NCBI RefSeq assembly: GCF_003853705.1
Contig: NZ_QTQI01000016.1
Span: 1 to 64,000, forward strand
Length of the DNA: 64,000 nucleotides
From: Burkholderia sp. Bp8992
Lineage (GTDB): Bacteria > Pseudomonadota > Gammaproteobacteria > Burkholderiales > Burkholderiaceae
Direction: 5' to 3'
Shown here: positions 300-28,777 of the stretch, piece by piece
How positions within the stretch are numbered: the first letter of the stretch is position 1
How the letters are laid out: each line of letters begins with the position of its first letter
Notes under the pieces: model-generated
Seen by the model: only the letters and a program-made list of their open reading frames with translations
Told to the model about the DNA's origin: nothing
Database searches by the model: none
Program-made: the position numbers and the translations under genes

Positions 300-301
300 C
301 A

Positions 302-1112: not shown

Positions 1113-2342
1113 TCACGACTCCGGCTTGGCGAGTCGCGGCTCCAGTTCCGGCTGATCCCTCGTGGACTCGATGCGCCAAAACCCGCCGAAGCGCAGCAGT
1201 GCCAAAACAACCGCAAACACCGTTGCCCCGGTCCCGAACATGATCCAGCGATTGGGCAACGCGGACAGGGTCGAGACGATCAACCCGCCAATCGGAAATC
1301 CGAGCAGCGAGATAACCATAACAATGGACGCCGCACTAGCGAATCCTTCTGGCGGCAAGAGGTTGTTCCGGAGGGTTCTCGACCACACGGAAAACGGTAG
1401 TGAAATGGCCATGGTCAACGCGCTGACCGCGAAGAAAAATACGCCGGACACCACTATCTGCGCCATCAGGAACATGGGGATCAGGAGCACTGACGCTCGC
1501 CCCAGCAACTTCATCCTGCCGGCAAGCGCGGGACGACTGTAAGCGAGATGAAACAAACCGGATAGCACCGCGCCCGATGTAAACAGCAACGCAACATCGC
1601 GCTTGCCGAGGCCATACTCACCGATCACGATATCCGGGATCAGCGTGATTAACACCGCCAGCACCGTGTTGATAAGGAGCATGCACAGCGCGAGGGTGAC
1701 TAGCCGCTGGTTTCGGACGAGCCGGTCCGCCAGAATCCTGAACGGTACCCGTTCCCCCCGCTCTACATCGGAAGCCGCCGCTTTCGGAATCACCGCGTAG
1801 AACAGGAAGGCGAGGCACGCGAACAGCAGCGCATAGAGCAGAAAGAACTGCTGCACGCTGAACGCTGCGATGACCGAAACGCCGATCAGCGGCGCGGCAA
1901 TCTGATTGACCTGCTGCGATACGGAGAAGAACGAGTAATAACTGCTGACCTGCGCATTCGGCACTCGGGACGCGACATACTTCTCGAAGCTCAGATACGC
2001 CACGATGTTCGCGGCGGAAGCCAGCGCGGCAAACAGCAGCATCAGTGCGATGTTCGGCAGCACGCCGGTTAGCAGCACCAACATCAGCGCGACGACCGCC
2101 CTGAGAATCGATGGGTGGAAAAAGCAGGCGCGGCACCCGAACCTGTCCACGAGCCAGCCCGCGATGGGCAACAACAGAATCGTCGGTAACCACTCAAGCA
2201 CGACGATCATCCCCAGCATCTGCTTGCTGCCTGTCAGTTGGTACACATAAAGCGGCAGGACGAACAGTGCTAGCCGCTCCAGAAACGTCTGTAGAAGAAC
2301 GACGCCCTTCAGCCCGATCAGCTTATCGATCAATTGAATCAC
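1113..2342 (-). CDS. MFS exporter of the biosynthetic cluster
   Basis: This 409-residue protein is strongly hydrophobic, with about twelve predicted membrane segments. It fits the major facilitator superfamily and most resembles the drug and siderophore exporter branch. It would sit in the inner membrane and probably exports the product of the adjacent pathway. The gene is last in the leftward operon. Its GTG start at 2342 lies inside the 3' end of the carbamoyltransferase gene (20-nt overlap), which indicates translational coupling. No other MFS gene is in the cluster; a second transporter, of EamA type, lies in the divergent operon. The substrate is inferred from context only. Confidence 0.85.
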   Translation of the reverse strand: MIQLIDKLIGLKGVVLLQTFLERLALFVLPLYVYQLTGSKQMLGMIVVLEWLPTILLLPIAGWLVDRFGCRACFFHPSILRAVVALMLVLLTGVLPNIALMLLFAALASAANIVAYLSFEKYVASRVPNAQVSSYYSFFSVSQQVNQIAAPLIGVSVIAAFSVQQFFLLYALLFACLAFLFYAVIPKAAASDVERGERVPFRILADRLVRNQRLVTLALCMLLINTVLAVLITLIPDIVIGEYGLGKRDVALLFTSGAVLSGLFHLAYSRPALAGRMKLLGRASVLLIPMFLMAQIVVSGVFFFAVSALTMAISLPFSVWSRTLRNNLLPPEGFASAASIVMVISLLGFPIGGLIVSTLSALPNRWIMFGTGATVFAVVLALLRFGGFWRIESTRDQPELEPRLAKPES

Positions 2343-4104
2343 TCCCTCTTCTGATCACGTAGTTTCCGATGTACAGCGCGTCCAGATTGGCTGTGAAGAG
2401 CGTCGCAATCGCATCTCTCGCGGTGCGAACGATGGGTTGCCCTTTGATATTGAACGACGTATTCAATACCACCGGCATCGACGTGAGCCGTTGCACCTCG
2501 TCCAGCAGCGCCCAGTATTTTTCGGATTTCTCGCGGTTGACTGTCTGCACGCGAGCGGTTCCATCGATATGCGTAATAGCGGGAAGAGACGCGACCCACT
2601 CCTTTCGAACCGGAATCGTATATAGCATATGCGGCGACTCGAAATTATCCGGCAGTTCGAAGTAGATATTCGCGCACTCGTATTTCACCGACGGCGCGAA
2701 AGGGCGAAATTCCTCGCGCTTCTTGATGCGTGCATTAACCCGCTCTTTCATGTCCGGCGCGCCCGGATTGGCCAAGATGCTGCGATTTCCCAATGCGCGC
2801 TGACCGAATTCCATGCGGCCTTGCACCCATGCAATGATGTTGTTGTCCTTGATATCGCCGGCTGCGGCCTCAAGCAAAGCCGTGTCATCCAGTTTTTGGA
2901 CATCGATGCTGGATCCGAATTCGCTGATGGACGCCCTAATCTCATCTTCGTCGATTTCATGCCCCCAGTACGGCAGGTCATTGGCCAGAAAGCTGGCACG
3001 TTTCCCGTTCGATTTCTCGACATGAAGCAGCATTGCGGCGCCGACGGCAGTGCCACCATCGTCCGCCGCAGGCGGGATGAAGATCTGCTTGAACAGCCCG
3101 CTGCGCAGCAGCTTACCATTGGCCGTGCAATTCAACGCCACCCCGCCCGCAAAACAGATATTCTCGGCACCCGTTTGCTCTTTCCAATGGCGGATCACAT
3201 GGAACAGCGCTTCTTCAATGCGTTGCTGTAACGCCGCCGCGAAGTCCCGATGGGCCTGCGTAATGGCCTCGCCAGCCTCGCGTGCCTTGATCACGTGTTC
3301 ATCCAGCCAGCGCCGGAAGCCCCGGCCGGTCTGTCGCTCCAGTTCGTTGACGTTGCGCTCGAAAGCTCGGACCACGACAGTTCCGCCGTCGGACAGTTCG
3401 ACCATGTCCTGGAAGGCGCGTCTGAACACTTCGGGATCGCCGTAAGGCGCCAGCCCCATAATCTTGTATTCGTCGGAGTTCACCCAGAAGCCCAAATGTG
3501 CCGTGATCTGAGAATACAGAATGCCCAGCGAACTGAGCGTGCCCTGTTGATGCAGCAGATTCAGCGCATGACCATGCCCCTCGTAGACCGAAATGGCGGT
3601 CATCTCGCCCAGACCGTCGGCGACAATCACTAGCGACCGTTCGAATCCGGACGGATAGAATGCCATCGCAGCATGCGCTAGATGATGATTGCAGGGTGCA
3701 TACAGTGTGTCGACATTGTCGAGCGAGAAGTGCTCCCTCCAGAGATCGGCCTGAATCTTCGGTGCCAGCACCTGATCGTAGTACCGGGAATTGCGCTCAC
3801 CGAGGTTGAACAGCTTCTGATAGGCCTGATAGTCGAAGCTGTGGGTGATCGCATCGAGGTCGGATGCGACGATCCCGGCCACATCCAGGCAGTACTGGAT
3901 CGCGTGGCGCGGAAAGTCGGACGTAAATTTTTCGCCGGTGAATCGTTCCTCAGCTGCTGCTGCAACGATCTCCCCATCGATCATCAGACAGACCGACGAA
4001 TCCATCCCCTGACACATCGCATATTCGTTTTCTGTCAGGCCGTCAAAAGCCTCGCGGCGATAACGCACGGATCCGTTTAGGCCGTTGTAACCCAGTATTT
4101 TCAC
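2323..4104 (-). CDS. O-carbamoyltransferase (NodU/CmcH/TobZ family)
   Basis: The 593-residue protein matches the two-domain carbamoyltransferase family. These enzymes make carbamoyl-AMP from carbamoyl phosphate and ATP and pass the carbamoyl group to a hydroxyl. The N-terminal Kae1-like domain carries the metal-binding HHLAHAA motif around residue 139. It also has a nucleotide-binding FAGGVALN segment and PPAADDGG. The C-terminal YrdC-like half carries GRMEFGQRALGNRSI, the family hallmark. Start codon is GTG at 4104 with GAGG just upstream, overlapping the end of the aldo/keto reductase gene, 8 nt away. The acceptor is probably a hydroxyl made by the neighbouring beta-hydroxylase or by reductive release from the A-T-R NRPS. 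Confidence 0.92.
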   Translation of the reverse strand: MKILGYNGLNGSVRYRREAFDGLTENEYAMCQGMDSSVCLMIDGEIVAAAAEERFTGEKFTSDFPRHAIQYCLDVAGIVASDLDAITHSFDYQAYQKLFNLGERNSRYYDQVLAPKIQADLWREHFSLDNVDTLYAPCNHHLAHAAMAFYPSGFERSLVIVADGLGEMTAISVYEGHGHALNLLHQQGTLSSLGILYSQITAHLGFWVNSDEYKIMGLAPYGDPEVFRRAFQDMVELSDGGTVVVRAFERNVNELERQTGRGFRRWLDEHVIKAREAGEAITQAHRDFAAALQQRIEEALFHVIRHWKEQTGAENICFAGGVALNCTANGKLLRSGLFKQIFIPPAADDGGTAVGAAMLLHVEKSNGKRASFLANDLPYWGHEIDEDEIRASISEFGSSIDVQKLDDTALLEAAAGDIKDNNIIAWVQGRMEFGQRALGNRSILANPGAPDMKERVNARIKKREEFRPFAPSVKYECANIYFELPDNFESPHMLYTIPVRKEWVASLPAITHIDGTARVQTVNREKSEKYWALLDEVQRLTSMPVVLNTSFNIKGQPIVRTARDAIATLFTANLDALYIGNYVIRRGSDSIDR

Positions 4105-4111
4105 GAAGACC

Positions 4112-5164
4112 TCAGTTGCTCAGTTGAAATTCCTGCATGTCGACTTCGGGATATCGCTCACCGAATCGAGGCTGCAGCTTGATGAGTGCGTCGAACTGCG
4201 CGAATACCGCATCCGCCGCCGCACCGAAGCGAATGTTCGACTTCAGATGTCCGGGATTTGACGTACCGATCACCGGGTGAATGTATTGCTGCCGGTTCTG
4301 GGACACCCACCTTATCCAGCCCAACGCCGCCTGATTCAACGTCATGCCGGTCGCCTTGCACGCGGTCTCCAGCTGCCCGACGGCACGCCTGACGGCTTCA
4401 AGGCTGCCGCCCTGATAGCGCGGAATCCCGCTTCGACAATCTTCCTCGCCGATGTGCTGCGTCGCGCCGGAAAGGAAGCCTCGCGAGAGCGGGCTGTACG
4501 CATAGAAACGCACACCCCTTTCGCGGCAGGCGTTAAATACACCGTCGTTCAGGGGAGTTGCCCGAAGCATCGAGAATTCGGATTGCACCGCATCCAGTCG
4601 GCAGACGCCGGCACTGAGATCCGTCAGGATGCGGTCCGCCTCCATGATCGTGCCGGCATCCACCTCGGACAGACCGATATGACGGATTTTCCCCGCGCGC
4701 TTCAAGCCGGCCAGCGCTTCGAGCGACGCCTTCAAATGCGCGCGCCCGACATCCAGCCGATGCAAGTAGAAGAGATCCAGATAGTCGGTCTGCAGCGCGT
4801 CAAGCGACGCTTCGCACGACGACACGATGTATTCGGGCGAGTTGTCGACGACCCGGCCCCAACCGCCGCTCGTTAGCCGGATGCCGCACTTGCTGGCGAT
4901 GAAAACGCCTGCACGGTCAACCCGAAGCTGACGGAGATGCTGGCCCAGTAACTGCTCTGAGGTAGGACCGCTGTCCGCCGGCGCATAGCAGTCGGCGGTA
5001 TCGAACTGATTAATTCCGGCGTCAAGCGCGGCCTGAACGACGAGCGCGCTGCTATCCGTGGACCGTCGGCCGTAAACCGGCGCCGACCAGTTCATGGTCC
5101 CCACGCACAGATCATGTACATCCCTGCCGGACGCGGTGGTCAAGACTCGCTGCGGTTCATGCAT
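4112..5164 (-). CDS. aldo/keto reductase
   Basis: This 350-residue NAD(P)H-dependent oxidoreductase has an AKR TIM barrel. The Asp and Tyr of the active site are in the FDTADCYAP segment near residue 58, the Lys is in FIASKCG, and the His is in FYLHRLD. Length is normal for the family. In context it is a good candidate to reduce the aldehyde released by the A-T-R NRPS to an alcohol, which the next enzyme in the operon could carbamoylate. Its ATG start at 5164 overlaps the stop of the CmlA-like gene by 8 nt. A role in reducing another ketone of the pathway is equally possible. Confidence 0.88.
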   Translation of the reverse strand: MHEPQRVLTTASGRDVHDLCVGTMNWSAPVYGRRSTDSSALVVQAALDAGINQFDTADCYAPADSGPTSEQLLGQHLRQLRVDRAGVFIASKCGIRLTSGGWGRVVDNSPEYIVSSCEASLDALQTDYLDLFYLHRLDVGRAHLKASLEALAGLKRAGKIRHIGLSEVDAGTIMEADRILTDLSAGVCRLDAVQSEFSMLRATPLNDGVFNACRERGVRFYAYSPLSRGFLSGATQHIGEEDCRSGIPRYQGGSLEAVRRAVGQLETACKATGMTLNQAALGWIRWVSQNRQQYIHPVIGTSNPGHLKSNIRFGAAADAVFAQFDALIKLQPRFGERYPEVDMQEFQLSN

Positions 5165-6785
5165 GAGCCATCTCCTCTAGATGCCTGGTGCCGTTCAGCA
5201 CGGCGACGCGCTTGTGCATCCGGTCGCATGAGTCGACAAATATATCGATCTCATCCTGGATTTTTGTATCGCCATCTGCTTCGACAGCCATGATTGGCGC
5301 GAGCCACGGCTCTCTGCCCAACGCATACACGAAGACCATTGAGGGCCGAAATGCACTGACCAGTTCGGACGCGCGGCGCGAACACGATCCGTTTAGGCGC
5401 CGCGTTTCCGCATGCACGCGCCCAGTCTGGCGCGCCATCATCGGCCCGTACAACCAAGTGAAAGGCGCGCCTTTTGATTCCATGCCAATAAACATGATGT
5501 CGATATCGCGCTCCGCGAGCTTCGCTATCTGCTCGAGATGGCGCGTGTTATCGAAACGCGCGTCGGCTACGAACAGATATCCGCTATACGCAGTTGAAAC
5601 GACGAACATCGCCTTCGAGGTGACGTTCAACTCGCCATGTTCACCCTGGAACGGAAGCGCCTGAACGGAGACCGTCTCGCCGATCGGAAACGTCTGGAAG
5701 CTCTTCAACTCCACGACGTTCTCGAATCCTATGGATCGCAGCACCATGTATGGCGAAGGGTCGAGCAGTGTCGAGCCGGCGCAGCTGGGAACGAGAATCC
5801 TCGTGACTCGGTGCCGGATGTTGAGCAGGGTTTCGATGCAGAAGTGATCGATGTGCAGATGTGTGATCAGCACCGCATCGATTTTTTCCGGCAGATCCGC
5901 GATCGTCAGCCGCGCTTCGTCCTTACGCGTCGCATAGCTGATGAACGGGTCGACCAGCACGCTTAGGCCGCCAGAGCGGACGAGAACGCAAGCGTGGCCG
6001 AAATAGTCCACTTCGTCGCGATCTGTCCGCGCCACGTCGATCCTGGACCGGAGCGGCTCGCGCGTGAACAGTGCCAGGAAGTCAGCCGTGCGCGCGTCGT
6101 CGACGCCCAGCGCTGCGCAAAGCGAGTGCACTTCGGTCTCGTCGATGCCGCGCGATCGGGAGGCAAGCAGGCGTTGCACCCCCTCGTCGTCGAAGCCTCG
6201 CTGAATCGAAAATGTGTTCGGCCCGGCGAGCCTGGGCGTACTCAGTGCGAAGTCCTTTTCATCGGGGTCGCCCTCGTAGATCAGGAACGACTGCAGCGAC
6301 CGGTCGAAATACCGGCTCCGATAAAGCATCGGTTCATTGATGCTGAAATGCGCGCGGTTCCATGCGTCGTAGCTCAACTCGACGCAGGCGGCGAGGTCGT
6401 CCGGCAGCGCGGCCAGATAGTGGGTCAGCGAGGAGCCCGTTTCATCGGCCAACGTTTCGCCCAGCCGGTCGAAAGCGTCGGCCAACTGAAACAGCGGCAG
6501 CAGTTGTCCAGTCAGTTCGTCATACAGGCGCCTTGCCGACTCAACCTTATCGTGGTGAAGCGTCAGGAATGGCCCGCCCTTCAACCGTGGGTCGCTGACC
6601 GCCTTCACGTGCGTCTGCGGCGCATCGACAAACGACTTGAGTAACTTTTCCACCAGCCGCCTCAGTAGCATGGCAGCGGAGGCGGGCTGGAACAGGTACG
6701 GGGAGGCGCGGTATCGAGCTATCAGCGGCTCAACGATCACCTCGGATTTCAGATATAGCCGCTCAGGCCTGCTCACGGTGCTCAC
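5157..6785 (-). CDS. CmlA-type diiron beta-hydroxylase with metallo-beta-lactamase fold
   Basis: The 542-residue protein resembles CmlA of chloramphenicol biosynthesis along its whole length. CmlA is the diiron oxygenase that beta-hydroxylates an amino acid while it is tethered to an NRPS carrier. The N-terminal third is the CmlA-specific docking and dimer domain, with LYLKSEVIVEPLI at the start and LYRSRYFDRSLQS further on. The C-terminal metallo-beta-lactamase fold has the metal-binding HLHIDH at residues 309-314, a Glu in GEHGEL at about 382, and an Asp in ADAR at about 408. The GMESKGAPFTWLYGP segment is also shared with CmlA. A plain hydrolase is unlikely given the N-terminal domain and the A-T-R NRPS nearby, which matches the CmlP arrangement. 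The start is GTG at 6785, or possibly GTG at 6776; the gene overlaps the preceding one by 23 nt. Confidence 0.88.
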   Translation of the reverse strand: MSTVSRPERLYLKSEVIVEPLIARYRASPYLFQPASAAMLLRRLVEKLLKSFVDAPQTHVKAVSDPRLKGGPFLTLHHDKVESARRLYDELTGQLLPLFQLADAFDRLGETLADETGSSLTHYLAALPDDLAACVELSYDAWNRAHFSINEPMLYRSRYFDRSLQSFLIYEGDPDEKDFALSTPRLAGPNTFSIQRGFDDEGVQRLLASRSRGIDETEVHSLCAALGVDDARTADFLALFTREPLRSRIDVARTDRDEVDYFGHACVLVRSGGLSVLVDPFISYATRKDEARLTIADLPEKIDAVLITHLHIDHFCIETLLNIRHRVTRILVPSCAGSTLLDPSPYMVLRSIGFENVVELKSFQTFPIGETVSVQALPFQGEHGELNVTSKAMFVVSTAYSGYLFVADARFDNTRHLEQIAKLAERDIDIMFIGMESKGAPFTWLYGPMMARQTGRVHAETRRLNGSCSRRASELVSAFRPSMVFVYALGREPWLAPIMAVEADGDTKIQDEIDIFVDSCDRMHKRVAVLNGTRHLEEMAHA

Positions 6786-7773
6786 CCTCTTTCTGGATCA
6801 CGTAGAATTGCACGACGGAGCCATCCTCGACTGTGGCCACGCAGGAATGTACGCGACAGCCCTCGCCAAGCAGTTCCGACCTATTAAGCAGAACCGGCGT
6901 GTGGCCGAACAGAACGGCATATCCCCCGTCCTTCAGGCAGCGCATCACCGACCGGAACAGATCCAGCGCCTTTGAACGTGACACCACTTCGGCATTCAGG
7001 AAGCGGAAGAAGATCAGATCGACAGACTTTTCCGCGGGCTTCGGATGCAACGAATCCCCCACGTGGAGTTCATCGGCCTTGCCCTCGGCAAACCTGATCA
7101 TGTCGGCGCTGATGTCCTGTCCGATCGTATAGATGCCGGGATGCGCCTGCTTCAATTCGAACAGAAATTGCCCCGTCGAGCAGGCAGGGTCGTACACCAC
7201 GAGATTTCGGGTGTTGAGGTTATTCAGGAAACAGGCGGACAACCGACGCAAGTAGATCTCGCCCAGCCCCAACAGGTGCGCGCGATGCTCATCGATGTGC
7301 CAGCCGTTGCCCGGAGTGTTGATCTCGACCTTGTCCGCGCCGACCAGTTGGACAAAGGGATAATGAATCTCCGCCGTCGCCGACGCCTTCAGCGAGGCGA
7401 GCACCGCCTCGATCCCGCGTTTTTCCATCTCCGTATAAAATACCTCGACGCCTTCTTGCGAGGTCTGAAAGTACTCGAGTCTGCCGAGGATCATCTCGCT
7501 AGAAATCTTTGAGCAAAAAAACCCCGGCGACCCGTGCTTCGTGACGATATCGGACAGGATCTTCGATCCAACGAACGACTGTTCGCCGGTCTTGACGATG
7601 AAAAAGCGGTGCGGCTGACCGTCCCACCGTTCGTTGGCGGAGCGAATCGCGCCTGGGTGGTAATCGCCAGCTTCGAATTTCCTGACCCGCGCCTCCCGCT
7701 CCTGATATTCGTGACGGTAGATCTCCGGAGAAACCTTGATTGCCTCGTCCCAAATGTCTACGAATTTATGCAT
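6763..7773 (-). CDS. SAM-dependent transferase, probably a methyltransferase
   Basis: The 336-residue protein has a class I SAM-binding core in its second half. Motif I is YDPACSTGQFL, followed by the acidic end of beta-2 in GQDIS and a VDLIFFRF segment. The N-terminal 180 residues are not a standard domain and may bind the acceptor. It could methylate an N or O position in the pathway. The PACSTGQ motif and long N-terminus also fit 3-amino-3-carboxypropyl transferases of the isonocardicin-synthase type, so transfer of a homoserine-like unit from SAM is an alternative I cannot exclude. The gene lies between the NRPS (20-nt gap) and the beta-hydroxylase (23-nt overlap). Confidence 0.75.
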   Translation of the reverse strand: MHKFVDIWDEAIKVSPEIYRHEYQEREARVRKFEAGDYHPGAIRSANERWDGQPHRFFIVKTGEQSFVGSKILSDIVTKHGSPGFFCSKISSEMILGRLEYFQTSQEGVEVFYTEMEKRGIEAVLASLKASATAEIHYPFVQLVGADKVEINTPGNGWHIDEHRAHLLGLGEIYLRRLSACFLNNLNTRNLVVYDPACSTGQFLFELKQAHPGIYTIGQDISADMIRFAEGKADELHVGDSLHPKPAEKSVDLIFFRFLNAEVVSRSKALDLFRSVMRCLKDGGYAVLFGHTPVLLNRSELLGEGCRVHSCVATVEDGSVVQFYVIQKEGEHREQA

Positions 7774-12651: not shown

Positions 12652-12692
12652 TATGGACTCCTAATTTAATGATTGGTGTTTCTATTGTTATA

Positions 12693-18720: not shown

Positions 18721-19652
18721 CGGCCCACTCCGCCTCCGAAGCGCGGCCGGACACCCGCGCGACCCTGCTGCTGTTCGCGACCTGCGTAATCATCTGGTCG
18801 ACGAACTGGTTCCCGATCACGATGCAGGTTCGCGAGACGCCCGTGCTAGCTTCGCTGTTCTGGCGTTTCCTGCTGGCCGCTCTCACGCTGCGCGCGTGCA
18901 CGTCGGTCCTCAGCCGCGATGGTTTGCCCAGCGCGCGTGTCCCCTACAGGCTGCTCGTGGCGATCGGTGTGACGTACTTCTTCGGCGGCATTGGCCTGAC
19001 CTACGTGGCGTCGAAAGATCTGACCAGCGCGTATGTCGCCTGTCTGAGTACGCTCGTCATCTTCTTCGCGATCGCAATCAAGCGGTTCGCCTACGGTACG
19101 CGCATCCTGCCCAGCAACGTGGCCGGCGCGCTGTTGTCAACCGCTGGGGTGCTTGTCTACGGCGGCGCCGGCATGGCTTCCACATCGTGGTGGGGTATCG
19201 CGGTTGCGGGGGCTGCGTTCGCGCTGATTGCGATCGGCTCGGTCTTGTCGGAACACGCGCAAAAGCGCTACGGCGCGACCTCGATCCAAATCAACACCAC
19301 CGCGATCAGTTGGGCGTGCGCGCTGTATTTCCTACTGGCGCTCGCGACCGGCACTTCGCTGCGAGTGCCCGTGACCGCCATGTACCTGCTGCCGCTGCTG
19401 TATCTCGGCATCGTCTGCTCCGCGCTGGTCTTCGTGCTCTACATCGCGCTGATCGGGCGAATCGGCGCGGAGTACGCGGGCTACATCAGCTTCATCTACC
19501 CGTTCGGCGCCGGTTACCTGTCCGTGCTCGTCGGGGAGTCCAGACTTTCATACCGCGCAGTGGGCGGCGGCGTGCTCATGGTCGCGGGATGTTTGATTGC
19601 AGCCCGTTACACGCGCATCGCCTCCCTGCGCGCCGGGGCCAACAAGGGGTGA
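18717..19652 (+). CDS. EamA/DMT-family transporter
   Basis: The 311-residue membrane protein has about ten predicted helices in two EamA repeats, as in drug/metabolite transporters of the RhaT/YdcZ type. It starts at ATG 18717, overlapping the NRPS stop as ATGA, so it is translationally coupled to the pathway. It is the second exporter candidate of the cluster, after the MFS protein in the left operon. Members of this family export amino acids and small metabolites, so it may remove a toxic intermediate or the final amino-acid-like product. The direction of transport is inferred. Confidence 0.87.
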   Translation: MTAHSASEARPDTRATLLLFATCVIIWSTNWFPITMQVRETPVLASLFWRFLLAALTLRACTSVLSRDGLPSARVPYRLLVAIGVTYFFGGIGLTYVASKDLTSAYVACLSTLVIFFAIAIKRFAYGTRILPSNVAGALLSTAGVLVYGGAGMASTSWWGIAVAGAAFALIAIGSVLSEHAQKRYGATSIQINTTAISWACALYFLLALATGTSLRVPVTAMYLLPLLYLGIVCSALVFVLYIALIGRIGAEYAGYISFIYPFGAGYLSVLVGESRLSYRAVGGGVLMVAGCLIAARYTRIASLRAGANKG

Positions 19653-21493: not shown

Positions 21494-22826
21494 AAACGAA
21501 GCGGTCAGTGGCGGCATCGCCGCCGATGCCGCCGGCTGGCGTGCGATCGACGCGCTGATCCCGCCGGACAAATCGATCAGCCACCGCGCGCTGCTGTTCG
21601 CCGCGCTCGCGCCGGAATCGGTCGCCATCCGGGGACTCAATTGCGGCAAGGCCGTCACGCTGCTGCTCGATGCGTTGCGCCAGTTGGGCGTCGACATCGC
21701 GTTCGATCCCGGCGCGCGCCGGGCGCGCGTGAACGGCTCGCTGCGCGACGCGGACTTTGCACCAGACACGACGGTCTATCTCGGACCGTCGAGCGCGGCC
21801 GCGCGTCTGCTGATGGGCGCGCTTACCGGGCTTGGCAAGCGTTGCATCGTGGATGGTGACGCCACCCTGCGCGCTCGACCGTTCGACTGGATCGTCGAGC
21901 CGCTGACGGAGATGGGTGGGCGCTTCGAATACCTCGGCGAACCCGGCGCGTTACCCATTCGCATACACGCGTCCGAGTTCACCGGTGGTCGCGTCGAAAC
22001 CCGGATTGGCAGCGCGCAGGCGGTGTCCGCTGCGCTGTTCGCCGGCATCGCCGGACGGCGCACGGTTCGGGTCCGCTACCCCGTGCGTGCGCGCGACCAC
22101 ACGCAGGTGATGGCCGGGAGTTTCGGCGACGATGTGTCGGAAGCCGACAACGAGGTCTCCTATTCGCCGGGCGAGTTCGCCGTGCCCGCCGAACTCGCCG
22201 TCCCGAAGGATCCGTCAGCGCTCGCCTATCCGGCTGCGCTGTTCCTATTGCGTCACCGGAACGATGCGGACACAACCGTCACATTTACTAGTGTGTGTCT
22301 GAATCCGACCCGGCTGGGTTTCTTCGACTGGCTCGCGCAATGCGGCTTCGACGTGCGCACCCGTGAGACCGGGCGCTCGCTCGGCGAGGCCGTCGGCGAC
22401 GTGGTTCTGCGCGGCGGCGGCGACGCCCGCGCGACGGATCTTGGATCGAAGGAGCGCTTCCACGCGATGATCGACGAAGTGCCGCTGGCGGCGGCGATCG
22501 GTTGCGTGCTGCCTGGCAACGCCGTGTTCCGCGATCTGTTTGAACTGACGTTCAAGGAAAGCGACCGCATCGCCGCAACACAAGCGATGCTTGCCACTCT
22601 CGGGCTGCGCGTCGACATCGACGGCTACGATATGCACGTGTACGGCGGCCAGACGCCGCGCCCCGGACCGGTGGTGCCGTCGTTCGGCGACCATCGTTTG
22701 TCGATGACTGCCCAAGTGCTGTTGAGCGCGCATGCGCTTGCGGCGGAGATCGAGGAAGGCCGCTGCTATCGCACCTCGTTTCCGGAATTCGGCGATTGCC
22801 TGCGGGTTCTTAAGGAGACTGCATGA
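21480..22826 (+). CDS. EPSP-synthase (AroA)-like enzyme with altered active-site loop
   Basis: The 448-residue protein is colinear with EPSP synthase. It keeps PDKSISHR (29-36), RARP, NPTRLG, the catalytic IDE (331-333), KESDR (359-363) and DHR (404-406). The hallmark LGNAGTA loop, which contacts phosphoenolpyruvate and phosphate, is instead LGPSSAA at 101-107, so Asn, Gly and Thr are all lost. The C-terminal Lys that contacts phosphoenolpyruvate is replaced in RTSFPEF. Normal enolpyruvyl transfer is therefore unlikely. The surviving acid-base residues would suit a dehydration or elimination on a shikimate-like ring. The gene lies in a biosynthetic operon between two redox enzymes, overlapping the reductase gene by 14 nt and the dehydrogenase gene as ATGA. 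It is not the housekeeping aroA. Confidence 0.88.
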   Translation: MIQYENEAVSGGIAADAAGWRAIDALIPPDKSISHRALLFAALAPESVAIRGLNCGKAVTLLLDALRQLGVDIAFDPGARRARVNGSLRDADFAPDTTVYLGPSSAAARLLMGALTGLGKRCIVDGDATLRARPFDWIVEPLTEMGGRFEYLGEPGALPIRIHASEFTGGRVETRIGSAQAVSAALFAGIAGRRTVRVRYPVRARDHTQVMAGSFGDDVSEADNEVSYSPGEFAVPAELAVPKDPSALAYPAALFLLRHRNDADTTVTFTSVCLNPTRLGFFDWLAQCGFDVRTRETGRSLGEAVGDVVLRGGGDARATDLGSKERFHAMIDEVPLAAAIGCVLPGNAVFRDLFELTFKESDRIAATQAMLATLGLRVDIDGYDMHVYGGQTPRPGPVVPSFGDHRLSMTAQVLLSAHALAAEIEEGRCYRTSFPEFGDCLRVLKETA

Positions 22827-23845
22827 CCCACGCGCACTATACGCTGCTAGCAGACGGCTCTCGCGGGGTCCGGCTGCACCGCGAGAACCTGCAGCCGCTG
22901 CGCGACACGGAGGCGCTTGTCCGCGTCACGCATTCGCTCGTGAGCCCGGGAACGGAGCGGCACTATATTGCCCAACTGCGCGAACAGGGCGGCCAGCTGC
23001 CTCTCGGTTATTGCGTGATCGGCGAGGTGGTCGCGGCCGGCGCTGCCGTGCACGACGCGCGGCCCGGCGAGCGCGTCGTCGCAATGGGCTGGCAGATCGC
23101 CACGCACTCGGACTACGTTGTTGTGCCGCGCAACCTGCTGTGCCGGGCAGACAACGCGCTGCCCGCCCGGCACGCGATCCTCGCAGCGATTGGTGCAACT
23201 GCCGTGCACGCGGCGGACCGGGCCGCACTCGGCAGGGGCGACCGTGTGCTGGTTGTCGGTGTCGGGCTGGTAGGCATCCTGATGGCGATCGTCGCATCGG
23301 CGGCGGGCGCCACGGTCGCCGCGGCGGACCGGGATCGCGCCGCGCTTGAACGGGCCGCCGCGTGGACTCCGTTCGAGCTCCCGGATTCACCGCCGGCGCA
23401 GGGTAGCTGCTTCGACCGGATCTTCATCTGCGTCGATGCTGACCTCACGCCACTCTTTCCGCGCCTCGCGCCGCTGCTCGACCAGTTCGGCCGGCATCGT
23501 AGCCGGCCGAAGCTGGTCAATGTTGGACGCGTGACCGGTCGGATCGACCTGTCGCCCGCGCTCGGTAACCTGGATATCGTCAACGTGTCGCGCTGCGGTG
23601 CGGGCTACCGCAACGATGCGTATCATCACGGTCTTGCTGAGGTACCACTCGTGGACGGCGAAGCGCACGTCGACCGGAATCTCGCCCGCTGCATGGCAAT
23701 ACTGACGCAGGCCCCCGCACAGCTCGCCCGTCTGGTCTATCGCGAGTACTCGGTCGACGACGCGCTGTCCGCGTACAACTCGGTCGAATTCTTCCCCCCA
23801 GGCGTCAACCTTATCACGCACTACACGGGAGACGCCGCACCGTGA
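22823..23845 (+). CDS. MDR-family dehydrogenase, BchC-like
   Basis: The 340-residue medium-chain dehydrogenase/reductase has a GroES-like N-terminus with LVSPGTERH. Its Rossmann motif is VGVGLVG near residue 150. The classic catalytic Cys and the structural zinc cysteines are not evident. It most resembles the BchC-like branch of zinc-type dehydrogenases that lack the structural zinc loop. It would oxidise a ring hydroxyl to a ketone or perform the reverse, using NAD(P). ATG 22823 overlaps the AroA-like stop and GTG 23842 of the next gene overlaps its own stop, so it is embedded in the same translational unit as the AroA-like enzyme and the NRPS. Confidence 0.8.
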   Translation: MTHAHYTLLADGSRGVRLHRENLQPLRDTEALVRVTHSLVSPGTERHYIAQLREQGGQLPLGYCVIGEVVAAGAAVHDARPGERVVAMGWQIATHSDYVVVPRNLLCRADNALPARHAILAAIGATAVHAADRAALGRGDRVLVVGVGLVGILMAIVASAAGATVAAADRDRAALERAAAWTPFELPDSPPAQGSCFDRIFICVDADLTPLFPRLAPLLDQFGRHRSRPKLVNVGRVTGRIDLSPALGNLDIVNVSRCGAGYRNDAYHHGLAEVPLVDGEAHVDRNLARCMAILTQAPAQLARLVYREYSVDDALSAYNSVEFFPPGVNLITHYTGDAAP

Positions 23846-25653
23846 CGGACGCCACGATCCCCGGCCTCCTCGCGCAAGTATTCCAGCGAGAGGCAGACCG
23901 CGAAGCGCTGTGGTCCGCCGCAGGCACGCTGCGCTATCGCGAATTGGACATACTGTCGGCCACGATTGCAGCCCGTCTCCGGCGCGCGGGCATTGGTCCC
24001 GGCAAGGTCGTCGGCCTTGACCTGCCGCGCTCGATCCGACAAGTCGTGTTTCTCGTCGGCATCGTGCGCGCGGGCGCGGCGTTCTGCTATCTCGATTCCC
24101 GACATCCTGACACGTGGAATCGCAGCATAGTCGAGCGCATCGGCATCCGGCACCTCGTGTCGCAAGCCACCCCCGGCTACGCGCGCGGCATCACAGCGCT
24201 CGCTCCGGATGTATTGCTGCAGCCCCTGTCAGACCCCGTCCCGCCGGCGTCGCCCGCATGCTCAGCCGACGACTGGCTGTACGTCAACTTTTCAAGTGGC
24301 ACCACCGGCGCGCCGAAGATCATTCCCTGCACGCATCGAGGCGTGTTGAACTTCTGTCACGACGCCCCGCATCTCCCGCCGCTCGGTCCCGGCACGCGGC
24401 TCGCCTACAGTTCGCCGCTGACGTTCGATGCGTCGCAGTTCGAGATCTGGGCGGCGCTGCTCAACGGTGGCGGTCTGATCGTCAACGACGATTCGCCGGT
24501 CACGGCGGGCTTGCTGAGCCATTGGGTTCGGCGTGCATCGCTAACTACCCTGTGGCTTACGACCTCGCTGTTCAACACGCTGGCCGACGTCGCACCGCGC
24601 TGCTTCAATGGCATCCGCGATCTGATCGTGGGTGGCGAGGAACTGTCGCCTCGTCATGTGGCGCGCATCTATGCGGAGAACGCGTCAATCACGATCCACA
24701 ACGGTTACGGTCCGACCGAGAACACGATCATGACGTGCGTCTTCCAGATCCCACGCGACTTCTCGTTCCCGGACAAGATTCCGCTCGGCCGCCCCGTGCG
24801 CGGACATGAGCTGCGCGTGCTCGACGCTAGCGGCGCGCCGTGCGCCGACGGCGAGATCGGTGAGTTGGCCATGTCCGGCCCAGGCCTGTCGCCCGGCTAC
24901 ATCGGTGACGACGCGCTAACGCACAAGCGGTTCCGCTACCTCGAAATCGACGGTGAGCGCGTGCGTCACTATTTGAGCGGCGATATGGTATCGCGTGACG
25001 TCGCCGGGCTTTATCACTATCACGGACGCGCCGACGATCAGCTCAAAATCCGCGGCAACCGCGTCGCGTTGTCCGACATCACGCTCGCCTACTCGTCGTG
25101 CGAGGGGCTGCGGGAATGTGTGGCGCTGGCGGTTAGGGGCGCGGGCGGCGCGTGGATCGGATTGACGTACGTGCCGGACGGTGACGATCCCGGCACGGCC
25201 ATCCTCGCGGCGTTCGGGAACGCGCGACTGCCGGCGTTCATGGTGCCGGCACGTTTCATGGCGCAGGATGAGCTGCCGTTGCGCGAAAACGGCAAATTGG
25301 ATGTCGTGCTGCTGCGCGCACGGTTCGAGGCGCTCGAACGCGAGGTCCGCGACGCAGTGACCGGCGACGCGGACACGTCGCTCGACGTGTTGCGGCGTCT
25401 GCTCCGCCTGCCCCGGCTGGGAATTGACGACGACTACTTCGACGCGGGCGGGGATTCACTGGGCGCGATCAGTATCGTGAGCGCGATCAACCGGCTCACG
25501 GGTGATGACAGTTTCAGCGTCGCGGACTTCTATGCGACCCCCACACTGAGCGCGCTGAGCGCGTATCTCCAGCAAGCTGGGGTCGTCGTGGAGGCGCGCG
25601 CATCCGAACCTGGGGCGGAGCCCGGGGAATACCATGTGTTTAAAATCTCATGA
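23842..25653 (+). CDS. NRPS A-T didomain
   Basis: The 603-residue protein has an adenylation domain with NFSSGTTGAPK, TFDASQFEIW, GYGPTENTI, SGDMV and the LRENGKLD segment. A carrier domain follows, with DAGGDSLGA and Ser near 539. The Asp in TFDAS indicates an alpha-amino acid substrate. No condensation or termination domain is attached; these are encoded by the next two genes. The start is GTG 23842, overlapping the upstream stop as GTGA. It probably loads the second building block, to be joined with the one on the A-T-E-like protein. Confidence 0.9.
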   Translation: MTDATIPGLLAQVFQREADREALWSAAGTLRYRELDILSATIAARLRRAGIGPGKVVGLDLPRSIRQVVFLVGIVRAGAAFCYLDSRHPDTWNRSIVERIGIRHLVSQATPGYARGITALAPDVLLQPLSDPVPPASPACSADDWLYVNFSSGTTGAPKIIPCTHRGVLNFCHDAPHLPPLGPGTRLAYSSPLTFDASQFEIWAALLNGGGLIVNDDSPVTAGLLSHWVRRASLTTLWLTTSLFNTLADVAPRCFNGIRDLIVGGEELSPRHVARIYAENASITIHNGYGPTENTIMTCVFQIPRDFSFPDKIPLGRPVRGHELRVLDASGAPCADGEIGELAMSGPGLSPGYIGDDALTHKRFRYLEIDGERVRHYLSGDMVSRDVAGLYHYHGRADDQLKIRGNRVALSDITLAYSSCEGLRECVALAVRGAGGAWIGLTYVPDGDDPGTAILAAFGNARLPAFMVPARFMAQDELPLRENGKLDVVLLRARFEALEREVRDAVTGDADTSLDVLRRLLRLPRLGIDDDYFDAGGDSLGAISIVSAINRLTGDDSFSVADFYATPTLSALSAYLQQAGVVVEARASEPGAEPGEYHVFKIS

Positions 25654-26983
25654 AAACGGAACGTCGAGCGTGGCGGCACATCCTCCTTTCCTGACGGTCG
25701 AGACGATTGCCGGACGCTACGCGGCGATCCATGGCGAGTACCACGCGGCGGCTGCGTTTGCGGCGTCGAACCGCGCTTGGCTGCGGGACAGTCCGGTGCT
25801 AGATTTCGTGCCGCTGAATAAGGCGCAGTGCTCGATGGTGTATCCGGAGCTGCTCCACGGCAACCGCACGGCGAACAATGTCACGTATCTTTTCACGCCG
25901 GACGGCGAGGCCGCGAGGCCCGGGACCCTATCGCGGCTGTGCACGGGCCTGGCCGCCCGCTTTCCAATCCTCGCCTGTCGCATCACTAATGACGCGGGCG
26001 TCTACGGCTTCGATCTTGCGGACATCCATCCACCGGAAGACTGGCCCTGGCCCGAGCATCCGGCATTCGACAGCGAGGCAGCCTGCAGCAGGTATTTCCT
26101 GCGGGCTGACCTGTCGCTCTTCGATGATCCTCTGTTCCGGCCGTTCACCTGCACGATTCGCGGCGAACCCCGCACCGGGGTGCTGCTGCACCATATCGTC
26201 GGTGACCACGTCGGGCAGATCGAATTGCTGCGGGCGCTGCGGGGGGCGCCGGCGGCGTCCGGGGATTTAGCGGAGCCCACGGAGCACACCGCCGATCTGG
26301 AATTCATCTTGACGAACCTCGCGCTCGCCGACGAGCACGAACGCGATGCGGATGCGTGCCTGCCCCACTGGTCCGATCTGAAAGCGCGGATCGCGGCGGC
26401 GCGGCAGTCGTCCGGGTCGGACTTCCCTTCGGCGGGCGCGACGGTCACTTGGCACCGGCAACGCATCACCGGCACGTCGCTCATGCCGGCCGGCGCGCAC
26501 AGGCAAGCCCTGTTGCTGGCGCGCTTTAAGCGTGCGCTGACGGCCGCGTTCGGCGTGTCGCAACCGCTCGTGCACGCGCTGTTCTCGATGCGCAAATCGC
26601 GGCGAGGGACTGGCTTCAGCACCTACGTGCTGCCGCTCTTGCTCGACCACGCGCACTTCGGTGAGCATTCCGATCCCGCGCGCGCGACCGGCTATCTGCT
26701 GGCCACGCGCGCCCACGGGGCGATCGGCGCGGAAGCTGCGCTCGCGGCTGCCGGATTGCGAGCGCATGAGGTTCGCGTGCTGTTCAACCTGGTGGATATG
26801 CGCAACGATGACGACCAGGGTTTTAGCGGGCTTGTCGACGAGACCGTGCCGTCTGAATCATGCAAGAGCGATCTCGACCTGACGCTGCTGTGCACGCGCG
26901 ACGCGGTCGACATCGTGGTGACCTCGCGTTTCGAACCGGCGCGAGTGGCTGCGTTCGCGCGGGCTTTCGTGGAGGACGCGTGA
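25634..26983 (+). CDS. stand-alone NRPS condensation domain
   Basis: The 449-residue protein is a free-standing condensation-type acyltransferase. The catalytic motif reads HHIVGDH (His186, His187, Asp191). The second His is kept, so it is probably active, while the usual final Gly is His. GFSTYVLPLLLDH in the C-terminal half matches the family bridge region. It probably joins the aminoacyl units carried by the A-T-E-like and A-T proteins. ATG 25634 overlaps the upstream gene by 20 nt and has GGGGAA about 5 nt before it; GTG 25670 is a less likely alternative. A role as a release or ester-forming enzyme is also possible for a free C domain. Confidence 0.82.
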   Translation: MCLKSHENGTSSVAAHPPFLTVETIAGRYAAIHGEYHAAAAFAASNRAWLRDSPVLDFVPLNKAQCSMVYPELLHGNRTANNVTYLFTPDGEAARPGTLSRLCTGLAARFPILACRITNDAGVYGFDLADIHPPEDWPWPEHPAFDSEAACSRYFLRADLSLFDDPLFRPFTCTIRGEPRTGVLLHHIVGDHVGQIELLRALRGAPAASGDLAEPTEHTADLEFILTNLALADEHERDADACLPHWSDLKARIAAARQSSGSDFPSAGATVTWHRQRITGTSLMPAGAHRQALLLARFKRALTAAFGVSQPLVHALFSMRKSRRGTGFSTYVLPLLLDHAHFGEHSDPARATGYLLATRAHGAIGAEAALAAAGLRAHEVRVLFNLVDMRNDDDQGFSGLVDETVPSESCKSDLDLTLLCTRDAVDIVVTSRFEPARVAAFARAFVEDA

Positions 26984-27711
26984 CTAAGGCGCGCCTGCTG
27001 TTTCTGCCTGATTTCGTCGGCTATCCGATCTGTTATTTCGATCTGGAGAAAAAGCTGGCCGGGACGGTCGACGCGCATCTGATCGACTACAACGCGTTCT
27101 GGCCATACGACAGCGTGGACGAACTCGCGGCCGCAATTGTCGAGTCGGTGGTAGGGGAGCACTATCACGCGGTGGCCGGTTACTCGTTCGGCGCGCATGT
27201 GGCTGTCCGGGTCGCGAACGTGCTGTATGCGCGCGGGACGGTGTCGCATCTGCATCTGATCGATCCACCTGTGCTCGCGGAGGTCGGCGCAATTGCCCAC
27301 GACGTCGAGGCCCAGCTCAAGCGCGATGCGCGGTATCGCTATGTGTTCGATCTTGCCGAGTGCGAATTGACGGATCTGGATCTCGTGTTCCGGAACGTCC
27401 GCCTGCTCGACGCATTGCCCAAGCGCTATCCGGCTACGCTGCCGTGCTCGTTGTACGTGGCTGGCGACGACCAGCGTTACATCGCGTGTGCCGACCAGTT
27501 CGCTGGTGACGGCGTGCCGATCACGCAGTTCGCGATCGCAGGAACGAATCATCGGGAGATCCTGCAATGCGCGTCGCTTGCGAGAGCGCTGGCGACGACG
27601 CATGATGCCGAGACGGCGCGTCAGGCCCGGCCCGATTCGGCCCACCCCGAAGACATGCGAGGCCTGCATAAATATCAAAATAATAGAGGGATGTATGAAG
27701 CATTGGATTGA
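26980..27711 (+). CDS. alpha/beta-hydrolase thioesterase
   Basis: The 243-residue protein has the thioesterase fold. The nucleophile motif is GYSFG with Ser69, a late Asp lies in VAGDDQRY, and the catalytic His is in GTNHREIL. It resembles the thioesterase domain found at the end of NRPS assembly lines, here as a separate protein. It would release the peptide from the last carrier by hydrolysis or cyclisation, or serve as an editing enzyme. The start is GTG 26980, overlapping the condensation-domain stop as GTGA. An upstream in-frame ATG at 26860 lies inside the condensation gene and is unlikely. Confidence 0.85.
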   Translation: MTKARLLFLPDFVGYPICYFDLEKKLAGTVDAHLIDYNAFWPYDSVDELAAAIVESVVGEHYHAVAGYSFGAHVAVRVANVLYARGTVSHLHLIDPPVLAEVGAIAHDVEAQLKRDARYRYVFDLAECELTDLDLVFRNVRLLDALPKRYPATLPCSLYVAGDDQRYIACADQFAGDGVPITQFAIAGTNHREILQCASLARALATTHDAETARQARPDSAHPEDMRGLHKYQNNRGMYEALD

Positions 27712-28777
27712 TGCAGTACGCGGGGTACTGCGACGCCCGGAGGTTCGGCTTGTAGTCGCGTTTTCCGGATTGGCGTTGGCGACGAGAATTGTCACCTATG
27801 GCTGGGGAGTCACGCTTGTAGGCACGGCATTGTTCAGTTTTATGTTGTGGGAGCTGTTCGTGGAGTGGCGACGATTCCTGCCGCCTTTTCGCAGGATGAT
27901 GTTGAAGCGTGTAATGCGCATCATGAAAGCGCTACGGCCGCTGCGTAAGCTTCCCCCCGACGTCCCGGTCCTGTACGGCGCTGTCATGATGTACATGATT
28001 GCTCGTCTGATCCTGGCCACCCTGCATTGGATGCCCTTGTTCGGTTCCATGTACGAGATGTTCTGCATCGGTGTGGTGACCTCGATTGCGGCACTTCGGC
28101 ACGCACATCTGATACTTGCCCGGATTGCGAAGTGGTCGTGGGGAAAGACGCTCGGAAAAGCGTTGTATGCGCTGTCGACTGCGGTATGTATCGCAGTCGG
28201 AGCTGCGCAAGCAATACGTACGACGCGACTGTTGACCCACGCAGATGCGAAGTACTTTCCGAGCTTCGTTGGTCTTCTGTCGTCCTGGTATGTAGTTCTG
28301 AACTTTGTCCGTTGCGCTGCAATTTTCCTTGCCGTGTGTGGCGCAATACTTATTCTGATCAACCTGCCGTCGCTCTTGTTGCGATCCGTGCGAGCCTGGT
28401 TCAAGTTCCTCCCGAAGGAGAGGACGAACACGGTATTCATTTGGTGGCGAAGAGTGCGCTTCGGGCGCCGCGGCGATCCGGCACTGCAAGGTCGTTACTT
28501 GCGCGACATTATTGAGCTTTTTACCCCGATGGCATTACTCGGTCTCGCGACGGTGATCGTCGCTGCACCAGAGTCGATAGCAGGCGCACGGGCTACTGCA
28601 ATAATCCTCAACCAGACGCTATTTGCTATGGAGTACACCGCTGATGGCGGTTGTCCGGCAGTCGGCAACCTGCCGACCGTGCATCTTGATCGGGATTTTG
28701 TGTCGACGGGGGTGTTGGTAGGGAACCGGCTGATTACAATGCGGCAAGAGTGTCACGGCCCCGAGAAAGCCAAGTAG
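27695..28777 (+). CDS. multi-pass membrane protein of unknown function at the operon end
   Basis: The 360-residue protein has several hydrophobic segments (about residues 18-50, 90-110, 120-135, 160-180, 195-240 and 285-305) with Arg/Lys-rich loops between them. A soluble C-terminal tail of about 60 residues contains three cysteines. I do not recognise the family. ATG 27695 overlaps the thioesterase gene by 17 nt, so it is cotranscribed with the pathway, although its GC content is lower than that of the genes before it. Transport, membrane anchoring of the enzymes or producer immunity are possible roles, none shown by the sequence. Confidence 0.7.
   Translation: MKHWIDAVRGVLRRPEVRLVVAFSGLALATRIVTYGWGVTLVGTALFSFMLWELFVEWRRFLPPFRRMMLKRVMRIMKALRPLRKLPPDVPVLYGAVMMYMIARLILATLHWMPLFGSMYEMFCIGVVTSIAALRHAHLILARIAKWSWGKTLGKALYALSTAVCIAVGAAQAIRTTRLLTHADAKYFPSFVGLLSSWYVVLNFVRCAAIFLAVCGAILILINLPSLLLRSVRAWFKFLPKERTNTVFIWWRRVRFGRRGDPALQGRYLRDIIELFTPMALLGLATVIVAAPESIAGARATAIILNQTLFAMEYTADGGCPAVGNLPTVHLDRDFVSTGVLVGNRLITMRQECHGPEKAK

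What the first reader, a model, noticed from the sequence alone, without database searches (positions are those of the whole stretch)
1113..28777. A divergent, possibly undescribed NRPS-based biosynthetic cluster
Two operons face away from a shared 1.9-kb spacer and together hold nineteen genes. One arm has an A-T-R NRPS with a CmlA-type hydroxylase, ATP-grasp ligase, TauD dioxygenase, carbamoyltransferase and exporter. The other has A-T-E-like, A-T, free C and thioesterase proteins plus an AroA-like/FrhB/MDR/aminotransferase set. I do not recall a described pathway with this set. Treating both arms as one pathway is an inference from layout.
Basis: partly seen in the sequence, partly recalled or inferred. 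Interest (0 to 1): 0.88.

Follow-up and report, generated by a model that had tools for sequence, protein, structure and literature searches.

The report
Shared amino-acid cassette in peptide cluster
A Burkholderia gene cluster for a small peptide product contains a set of five genes, also found together in some Streptomyces, that probably turns a shikimate-pathway compound into an unusual amino acid using a remodelled relative of the enzyme hit by glyphosate.

Summary
The genes described are real: two operons (8 and 11 genes) diverge from a 1.7-kb AT-rich spacer, on what looks like an island in a Burkholderia cepacia complex-like replicon. The main new result is in the right arm. Its AroA-like protein, class III aminotransferase, FrhB-type Fe-S flavoprotein, BchC-like dehydrogenase and A-T enzyme recur together in Streptomyces: a 50-52% identical FrhB occurs in 7 of 266 species genomes, in all 7 beside the same neighbours. 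All 8 cassette AroA proteins lack the N-x-G-T loop that 6 of 6 ordinary AroA kept, while retaining the other catalytic blocks. I read this as a cassette that makes and activates a ring-type, shikimate-derived amino acid, joined here with a valine-type unit. The left arm is a chloramphenicol-like module (tyrosine-type A-T-R, CmlA, aldo/keto reductase, carbamoyltransferase, ATP-grasp). It does not travel with the cassette in the Streptomyces stretches read, and its codon usage differs from the right arm's, so 'one pathway' is not supported, though not excluded. No close homologue was found in the 65 Burkholderia species searched with FrhB and CmlA. MIBiG could not be consulted. The product is unknown.

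The parts
1113..2342 (-). L01 MFS exporter
   Evidence: PF07690 E=8e-21
2323..4104 (-). L02 NodU-type O-carbamoyltransferase
   Evidence: PF02543 and PF16861; 32-33% to proteins of two Streptomyces plasmids that sit beside an ATP-grasp homologue
4112..5164 (-). L03 aldo/keto reductase
   Evidence: PF00248 E=3e-54
5157..6785 (-). L04 CmlA-type diiron beta-hydroxylase
   Evidence: PF18456 E=2e-52 plus metallo-lactamase fold; HLHIDH motif at residue 309
6763..7773 (-). L05 SAM methyltransferase with about 180-residue N-terminal extension
   Evidence: PF13649 over residues 192-283
7794..10529 (-). L06 A-T-R NRPS, A code DASTVAAVC (Tyr-like; reading of the code is recalled knowledge)
   Evidence: AMP-binding, PP-binding, NAD_binding_4; thioester-reductase model TIGR01746 83.5 bits, below its cut-off; code (the gappier alignment put His at one position); GxxGxxG and YxxxK
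10522..11787 (-). L07 ATP-grasp amide ligase-like
   Evidence: sub-threshold ATP-grasp in Pfam; PDB L-amino acid ligase 4wd3 E=1e-11; 36% in Streptomyces plasmids
11797..12651 (-). L08 TauD-family Fe/2-oxoglutarate dioxygenase
   Evidence: PF02668 E=7e-54
12652..14370 (.). AT-rich divergent spacer, no conserved gene recognised
   Evidence: GC 0.446 over 13001-14000; no plasmid match; 4 sigma-70-like sites against 2.1 (sd 1.5) in shuffles
14371..15759 (+). R01 class III aminotransferase (cassette gene)
   Evidence: PF00202 E=3e-80; 33-36% in 7 of 7 Streptomyces cassettes
15802..18720 (+). R02 A-T plus E-like domain with HQ in place of HH (A-T part is a cassette gene); A code DAMHVGAVA
   Evidence: 31-33% to cassette A-T in 6 of 6 readable Streptomyces loci; code
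18717..19652 (+). R03 EamA-type exporter
   Evidence: PF00892
19659..20135 (+). R04 GNAT acetyltransferase
   Evidence: PF13673
20132..21493 (+). R05 FrhB-type Fe-S flavoprotein (cassette gene)
   Evidence: PF04432, PF04422, 4Fe-4S; 50-52% identity in 7 Streptomyces, motifs
21480..22826 (+). R06 AroA-like protein with rebuilt PEP loop, PSSAAARLL (cassette gene)
   Evidence: PF00275 E=1e-51; alignment; identities and tree
22823..23845 (+). R07 BchC-like MDR dehydrogenase (cassette gene)
   Evidence: TIGR01202 E=7e-18, below cut-off; 37-39% (45% over a cut-off piece in L058) in 7 of 7 Streptomyces cassettes
23842..25653 (+). R08 A-T, code DAFWIGGIM (valine-like; recalled code)
   Evidence: code
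25634..26983 (+). R09 unassigned, HHIVGDHVG motif; possible stand-alone condensation protein
   Evidence: motif only; no profile support
26980..27711 (+). R10 stand-alone thioesterase
   Evidence: PF00975 38.9 bits against cut-off 26.4; GYSFGAH
27695..28777 (+). R11 membrane protein by appearance of the sequence, no family

Best explanation
The right arm makes a small peptide from a dedicated ring-type amino acid and a valine-like residue. Five enzymes form a transferable building-block cassette. R06, an EPSP-synthase-fold enzyme, acts on shikimate 3-phosphate or a close relative, probably without ordinary enolpyruvyl transfer because its PEP loop is rebuilt. R05 (4Fe-4S/flavin) then reduces or dehydroxylates the ring. 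R07 oxidises a ring hydroxyl to a ketone, R01 transaminates it, and the A-T part of R02 activates the resulting amino acid. R08 activates valine, R09 (if it is a condensation enzyme) joins them and R10 releases or edits the chain. R03 exports and R04 may acetylate. The left arm independently makes a beta-hydroxylated, reductively released aromatic amino acid in the chloramphenicol manner (A-T-R, CmlA, aldo/keto reductase), decorated by methyl and carbamoyl groups and joined to an acid by the ATP-grasp ligase. The two halves may be ligated by L07 or may be two products. Shown: gene identities, conservation of the five-gene cassette, the AroA loop change. Inferred: every reaction and its order, the substrate, the coupling of the arms.
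For: FrhB relatives at E of 9e-121 or better in 7 of 266 Streptomyces genomes; an eighth matches only weakly. AroA-like, class III aminotransferase, FrhB and MDR neighbours in 7 of 7 (MDR cut by the contig end in one), and A-T in the 6 whose contig goes on. The weak FrhB homologue (28%, G1473) has none of these neighbours. AroA loop (P/G)SSAAARLL in 8 of 8 cassette proteins against N[SA]GT in 6 of 6 ordinary AroA, with the DKS, RP, SAQ, RDH/RAH, DE, KE..DR and DHR blocks kept. The window AroA is 38-43% identical to the cassette set and 29-33% to the ordinary set. The A pockets of R02 and the Streptomyces A-T share 5 of 9 residues, or 4 of 9 if one ambiguous column is read a residue later. R08 pairs best with a branched-chain-type A-T-C found in 4 of the 6 Streptomyces loci whose downstream side was read. 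CmlA, A-T-R and Tyr-like code.
Against: R02 and its Streptomyces counterpart differ at 4 or 5 of 9 pocket residues, so the substrates may differ. Gene order is rearranged between window and Streptomyces. In the AroA tree the window protein sits on a long branch between the Streptomyces and the ordinary set (node support 0.994 and 1.000), so the tree alone does not place it in the cassette clade. The AroA-like protein keeps the catalytic acid/base residues, so enolpyruvyl transfer to another acceptor is not ruled out. R09 has no profile support as a C domain. The E-like domain lacks its catalytic His. Two of the 6 Streptomyces loci lack the branched-chain A-T-C. No reference pathway sequence could be tested. 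The arms differ in codon usage, which argues against a single origin.
Confidence: 0.55

Rival explanations
1. AroA-like is a true enolpyruvyl transferase with a new acceptor, and FrhB reduces the enolpyruvyl double bond, a MurA/MurB-like pair that builds a lactyl ether on the building block.
For: Catalytic Lys, Arg, Asp and Glu blocks are conserved; AroA-like and FrhB co-occur in 7 of 7 loci.
Against: The PEP-contacting N-x-G-T loop (role recalled) is replaced in 8 of 8. The solved structures closest to R05 are F420-hydrogenase/dehydrogenase beta-type subunits, not MurB.
Confidence: 0.2
2. The AroA-like protein is a self-resistance copy of EPSP synthase, and the product inhibits the shikimate pathway.
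For: A rebuilt loop at the glyphosate/PEP site could confer insensitivity (site knowledge recalled; loop shown).
Against: It travels with ring-modifying enzymes and a dedicated A-T in a different phylum, which suits a biosynthetic role better.
Confidence: 0.08
3. Both arms form one pathway: L07 ligates the left-arm amino alcohol to the right-arm dipeptide.
For: Divergent layout from one spacer with no recognised gene between; an ATP-grasp ligase would suit such a step.
Against: Streptomyces cassette loci lack left-arm genes in the stretches read, apart from generic A-domain hits and two weak matches. In those 7 genomes the ATP-grasp query finds at best 31-33% identity (best E 2.5e-25), in 5 of 7. 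ATP-grasp and carbamoyltransferase homologues pair up without right-arm genes in two Streptomyces plasmids. Codon usage differs between the arms.
Confidence: 0.35

Closest known systems
Unnamed Streptomyces NRPS-PKS clusters (L053-L059, read here)
   Same: AroA-like, class III aminotransferase, FrhB, MDR and A-T side by side, with the same AroA loop; a branched-chain-type A domain nearby in 4 of 6
   Different: They add a KS-AT-KR-ACP module, C and KAS III-like genes and lack the left arm; the A-T read in L053 has no E-like domain; no R09 match and only one weak R10 match (28%, L083); order AroA-AT3-FrhB-MDR-A-T
Chloramphenicol assembly (CmlP, CmlA; recalled)
   Same: A-T-R enzyme with aromatic code, CmlA hydroxylase, reduction of the released aldehyde
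   Different: No halogenase or PapABC recognised among the 19 genes; carbamoyltransferase, ATP-grasp, TauD and methyltransferase instead; Tyr-like rather than p-aminophenylalanine
Recruited AroA of the Streptomyces arseno-organic cluster (Cruz-Morales 2016; known here only through passages in PMC9231227 and PMC6939163)
   Same: An AroA paralogue recruited into a biosynthetic cluster
   Different: Sequences were not compared; that paper was not held
Shikimate-derived cyclohexanecarboxylate of ansatrienin (passage of PMC8788734) and DHCCA of enacyloxin (recalled)
   Same: Ring carboxylic acid taken from shikimate as a building block
   Different: No amine in those units (recalled); reference enzymes could not be compared
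NikS/polyoxin-type ATP-grasp ligation with carbamoyltransferase (recalled)
   Same: ATP-grasp relative (28% to records named NikS) and carbamoyltransferase
   Different: No nucleoside genes recognised

Membership tests
EPSP synthase (AroA) | EPSP_synthase fold family | tested here: met
   PF00275 176 bits against cut-off 22.8
EPSP synthase (AroA) | Equivalog score TIGR01356 | tested here: not met
   227.9 bits, cut-off 287.25
EPSP synthase (AroA) | N-x-G-T PEP-binding loop | tested here: not met
   PSSA in the window, GSSA in 7 Streptomyces cassette proteins, N[SA]GT in 6 of 6 ordinary AroA
EPSP synthase (AroA) | EPSP formation | not testable with these tools
   needs enzyme assay
Five-gene ring amino acid cassette (defined here) | AroA-like, AT-III, FrhB, MDR and A-T clustered | tested here: met
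   window and 6 of 7 Streptomyces complete, the seventh cut by contig end
Chloramphenicol-type pathway | A-T-R plus CmlA hydroxylase | tested here: met
   R-domain model below cut-off
Chloramphenicol-type pathway | PapABC and halogenase | tested here: not met
   not recognised among the 19 genes; the rest of the window was not annotated gene by gene
NRPS epimerization domain (R02) | HHxxxDxxSW active site | tested here: not met
   HQFHVDRYSW
NRPS condensation domain (R09) | Condensation profile | tested here: not met
   no Pfam hit to E=1; hhalign probability under 1% in three comparisons; HHxxxD motif present
FrhB-type Fe-S flavoprotein | FrhB N and C domains with 4Fe-4S motifs | tested here: met
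Characterised MIBiG cluster | close match | not tested
   MIBiG and antiSMASH not available

The most novel reading that the evidence does not exclude
The cassette defines an unrecognised branch off the shikimate pathway, shared between Burkholderia and Streptomyces. An EPSP-synthase-fold enzyme that no longer uses PEP in the normal way, probably catalysing an elimination on shikimate 3-phosphate, and an Fe-S/flavin FrhB reductase build an amino-cyclohexene or amino-cyclohexane carboxylic acid that a dedicated A-T protein feeds into NRPS and PKS lines.
Probability: 0.33. Interest if true: 0.82.

Novelty: new variant of a known kind. Interest (0 to 1): 0.62.

Why it matters
If the reading is right, it gives a gene signature for a family of peptides and polyketide hybrids carrying a ring amino acid that I found linked to these genes in no paper searched, and shows how a much-studied herbicide-target fold was turned to new chemistry. 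The loop signature (P/G)SSAAARLL beside FrhB should make such clusters easy to find. The Streptomyces holders allow the chemistry to be tested without the Burkholderia strain.

Tried and rejected
Plasmid searches with A-T-R, CmlA, AroA, R09 and MDR gave distant hits or none. The five CmlA-bearing Burkholderia loci that I read in 20-kb stretches hold other NRPS genes and none of the rest of the left arm, except a 27% TauD in two of them, L072 and L073 (ten short stretches). The biotin-antibiotic paper PMC13336041 (outline, abstract and passages seen) looked promising from the search listing but has no F420, shikimate or EPSP content. Pepstatin paper PMC12081711: passages only; discrete NRPS/PKS genes but a different F420 enzyme. 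PMC5270213: one irrelevant passage.

Errors of mine, corrected: the backbone genes were badly chosen ORFs, so the codon comparison rests. The C-domain profile held one wrong-frame row and was redone. My first by-eye reading of pocket position 278 in R02 (notes, printout) is replaced; the column remains uncertain by one residue.

Null results for FrhB in Burkholderiaceae (0 of 269, overlapping the 65) and for ATP-grasp (0 of 398 at E 1e-35) carry the tool's warning that an empty answer without a known positive shows nothing. The FrhB query did work in Streptomyces; the ATP-grasp query was never seen to find a close relative.

Splitting or joining the arms by promoter, repeat or database evidence in the spacer led nowhere.


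Full report
What is there. The window carries two divergent operons at 1113-12651 (minus) and 14371-28777 (plus), 8 and 11 genes, with gaps between -23 and +42 bases inside each. Pfam supports MFS, carbamoyltransferase, aldo/keto reductase, CmlA, methyltransferase, A-T-R and TauD in the left arm. The ATP-grasp assignment is weak in Pfam but backed by solved L-amino acid ligases. In the right arm Pfam supports a class III aminotransferase, A-T with a condensation-superfamily domain, EamA, GNAT, FrhB with 4Fe-4S, EPSP_synthase, a weak MDR and A-T, and a thioesterase once its start is set at 26980. R09 and R11 match no family.

Where it lies. Window 31904-64000 is largely collinear with the second replicon of a Burkholderia cenocepacia strain at 89-94% identity (with a gap at about 41186-46530), and parts also match B. 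arboris. The two operons have no match in the 44-kb stretches of those two replicons that I compared. The left edge carries an IS3-type fragment with an ALIL frameshift pseudoknot, the right edge an H-NS-like gene and GC of 0.51-0.57. I infer an island; its left border lies outside the window, and no tRNA was found in the window. FrhB was not found in any of 65 Burkholderia species genomes at E 1e-15 nor in any of 269 Burkholderiaceae, an overlapping set. CmlA relatives, present in 21 of 65 at E 1e-30, reach only 39% identity.

The cassette. Searching 266 Streptomyces species genomes with the FrhB protein gave 8 with a match at E 1e-15: seven at E of 9e-121 or better (51-52% identity) and one at 2e-21. 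I fetched the surroundings of all eight. In the seven strong ones the AroA-like gene, the class III aminotransferase, FrhB and MDR follow each other (7 of 7; MDR is cut in one by the contig end), then the A-T gene (6 of 6 with contig left). Next come a polyketide synthase (6 of 6; domains KS-AT-KR-ACP scanned in L053, the others 77-95% identical to it), a C-domain gene (6 of 6) and a KAS III-like gene (6 of 6; family scanned in L063 only, the others 40-88% identical to it). A branched-chain-type A-T-C protein follows in 4 of these 6 and was not found in G1357 and G1374. The weak eighth FrhB has none of these neighbours. Identities to the window are 40-43% (AroA-like), 33-36% (aminotransferase), 50-52% (FrhB), 37-39% (MDR; 45% over the cut piece in L058) and 31-33% (A-T). 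Five genes from different families staying together across a phylum boundary is not chance.

The remodelled AroA. In an alignment of the window protein, the seven Streptomyces cassette proteins and six ordinary AroA from plasmid records, all eight cassette proteins replace N-x-G-T by (P/G)-S-S-A, while all six ordinary ones keep N[SA]GT. The blocks DKSxSHR, RP, SAQ, R[DA]H, (I/L/V)DE, KE(S/T)DR and DHR are kept in all 14. In E. coli numbering (recalled) the loop is Asn94-Thr97, which contacts PEP and glyphosate. The window protein is 38-43% identical to the cassette set and 29-33% to the ordinary set. A FastTree of the 14 sequences makes the ordinary set a clade (support 1.000) and the Streptomyces set a clade (0.994), with the window protein on a long branch between them, so the tree alone does not assign it; the loop, the identities and the neighbours do. 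It scores below the curated AroA cut-off (227.9 against 287.25). I take this as a change of chemistry at the PEP side with the shikimate-phosphate side kept. That is inference, not a test.

Other cassette residues. FrhB keeps both ferredoxin cysteine motifs and long invariant blocks such as CGDWMSGLAD and NLGLERKRNRR in 8 of 8. Read by alignment, the A pocket of R02 is D-A-M-H-V-G-A-V-A and that of the L053 A-T D-S-Q-H-A-G-A-C-A; all six Streptomyces A-T proteins agree with each other at the columns printed, where the fourth was taken one residue later. Five of nine are the same, or four of nine with that other column. The shared Asp argues for an amine near the carboxylate (recalled rule). 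R08 (D-A-F-W-I-G-G-I-M) and the Streptomyces A-T-C (D-A-L-W-M-G-G-V-F in two, D-A-L-W-M-G-G-I-F and D-I-L-W-L-G-G-I-L in the others) look valine-like or branched-chain-like (recalled codes). R08 is closer to three of these A-T-C proteins (32-34%, 236-246 bits) than to the cassette A-T (27%, 129 bits), and R02 the reverse (182 against 130-134 bits).

How the right arm may work. Shikimate 3-phosphate or a relative is altered by R06; R05 reduces or dehydroxylates; R07 makes a ketone; R01 aminates; R02 activates; R08 activates valine; R09 may condense; R10 releases; R03 exports; R04 may acetylate. None of these steps has been shown. The E-like domain of R02 has Gln for the catalytic second His, so I do not predict epimerisation; the one Streptomyces cassette A-T that I read through (L053) ends after its T domain.

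The left arm. A-T-R with a Tyr-like code, CmlA with an HxHxDH motif and an aldo/keto reductase would give a beta-hydroxylated aromatic amino alcohol in the manner of chloramphenicol (recalled pathway), then methylation and carbamoylation. ATP-grasp and carbamoyltransferase homologues sit side by side in two Streptomyces plasmids (36% and 32-33%) without other genes of the window; in the one scanned, L008, they lie beside a polyketide synthase.

Unity of the arms. Against it: no left-arm gene lies in the Streptomyces stretches read, apart from generic A-domain hits, one 22.5% aldo/keto reductase match in L064 and one 26% ATP-grasp match about 12 kb from the G1374 cassette's AroA gene. A second aminotransferase match (29%) in L082 and a weak thioesterase match (28%) in L083 were the only further right-arm hits there besides A domains. 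The stretches read run from 9 kb (G1452) to about 60 kb (four genomes). In the seven whole genomes the ATP-grasp query matches in 5 at E 1e-5, best E 2.5e-25 at 31%, highest identity 33%, both on other contigs than the cassette. Codon usage of the arms (8 left, 10 right genes) differs more than in 499 of 500 gene permutations, with mean GC3 0.733 and 0.779 against 0.865 in 14 backbone ORFs that were themselves chosen by high GC3. For it: only the shared spacer and the presence of a ligase. I leave it at about one in three.

Novelty. Recruitment of AroA paralogues into biosynthetic clusters is known in principle (passages in PMC9231227 and PMC6939163), and a shikimate-derived ring acid is known from ansatrienin (passage in PMC8788734). 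Ten searches of the held papers (listings seen) showed none that links AroA-like, FrhB, class III aminotransferase and an A-T enzyme; most subscription papers and MIBiG are outside that library. I therefore file it as a new variant of a known kind: an NRPS cluster with an apparently undescribed building-block cassette.

Noticed in passing
window 282 to about 1043: IS3-family transposase fragment with an ALIL frameshifting pseudoknot (282-376, minus strand) at the left edge of the cluster.
   Followed up: partly
window 28944-29546: H-NS-family DNA-binding protein directly beyond the right arm, in low-GC DNA; could silence the island.
   Followed up: no
window 29966-30997: 343-aa ORF with GC3 0.54 and no family, in the junction between the cluster and the collinear backbone.
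   Followed up: no
window 13386-13868: 160-aa ORF in the divergent spacer with no family; probably not a gene.
   Followed up: partly
L008 15001-18195 and L010 15001-18195: Two Streptomyces plasmids carry an ATP-grasp (36%) and carbamoyltransferase (32-33%) pair resembling left-arm genes; in L008 it lies beside a polyketide synthase and a flavin reductase.
   Followed up: partly
L071 3836-5068: An FrhB-type protein in a Pseudomonas plasmid near dehydrogenase and peptidase genes; in L070 one lies among lipopolysaccharide genes. FrhB proteins seem recruited to varied pathways.
   Followed up: no
L063 11519-12481, L064 8677-9648: Tandem GNAT proteins near two Streptomyces cassettes, which may be self-resistance acetyltransferases; the window also has a single GNAT (R04), not detectably related.
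   Followed up: no
L072 9390-15115 and L073 4915-10378: Two Burkholderia species with a 38-40% CmlA and a 27% TauD near NRPS A domains, in different clusters.
   Followed up: partly
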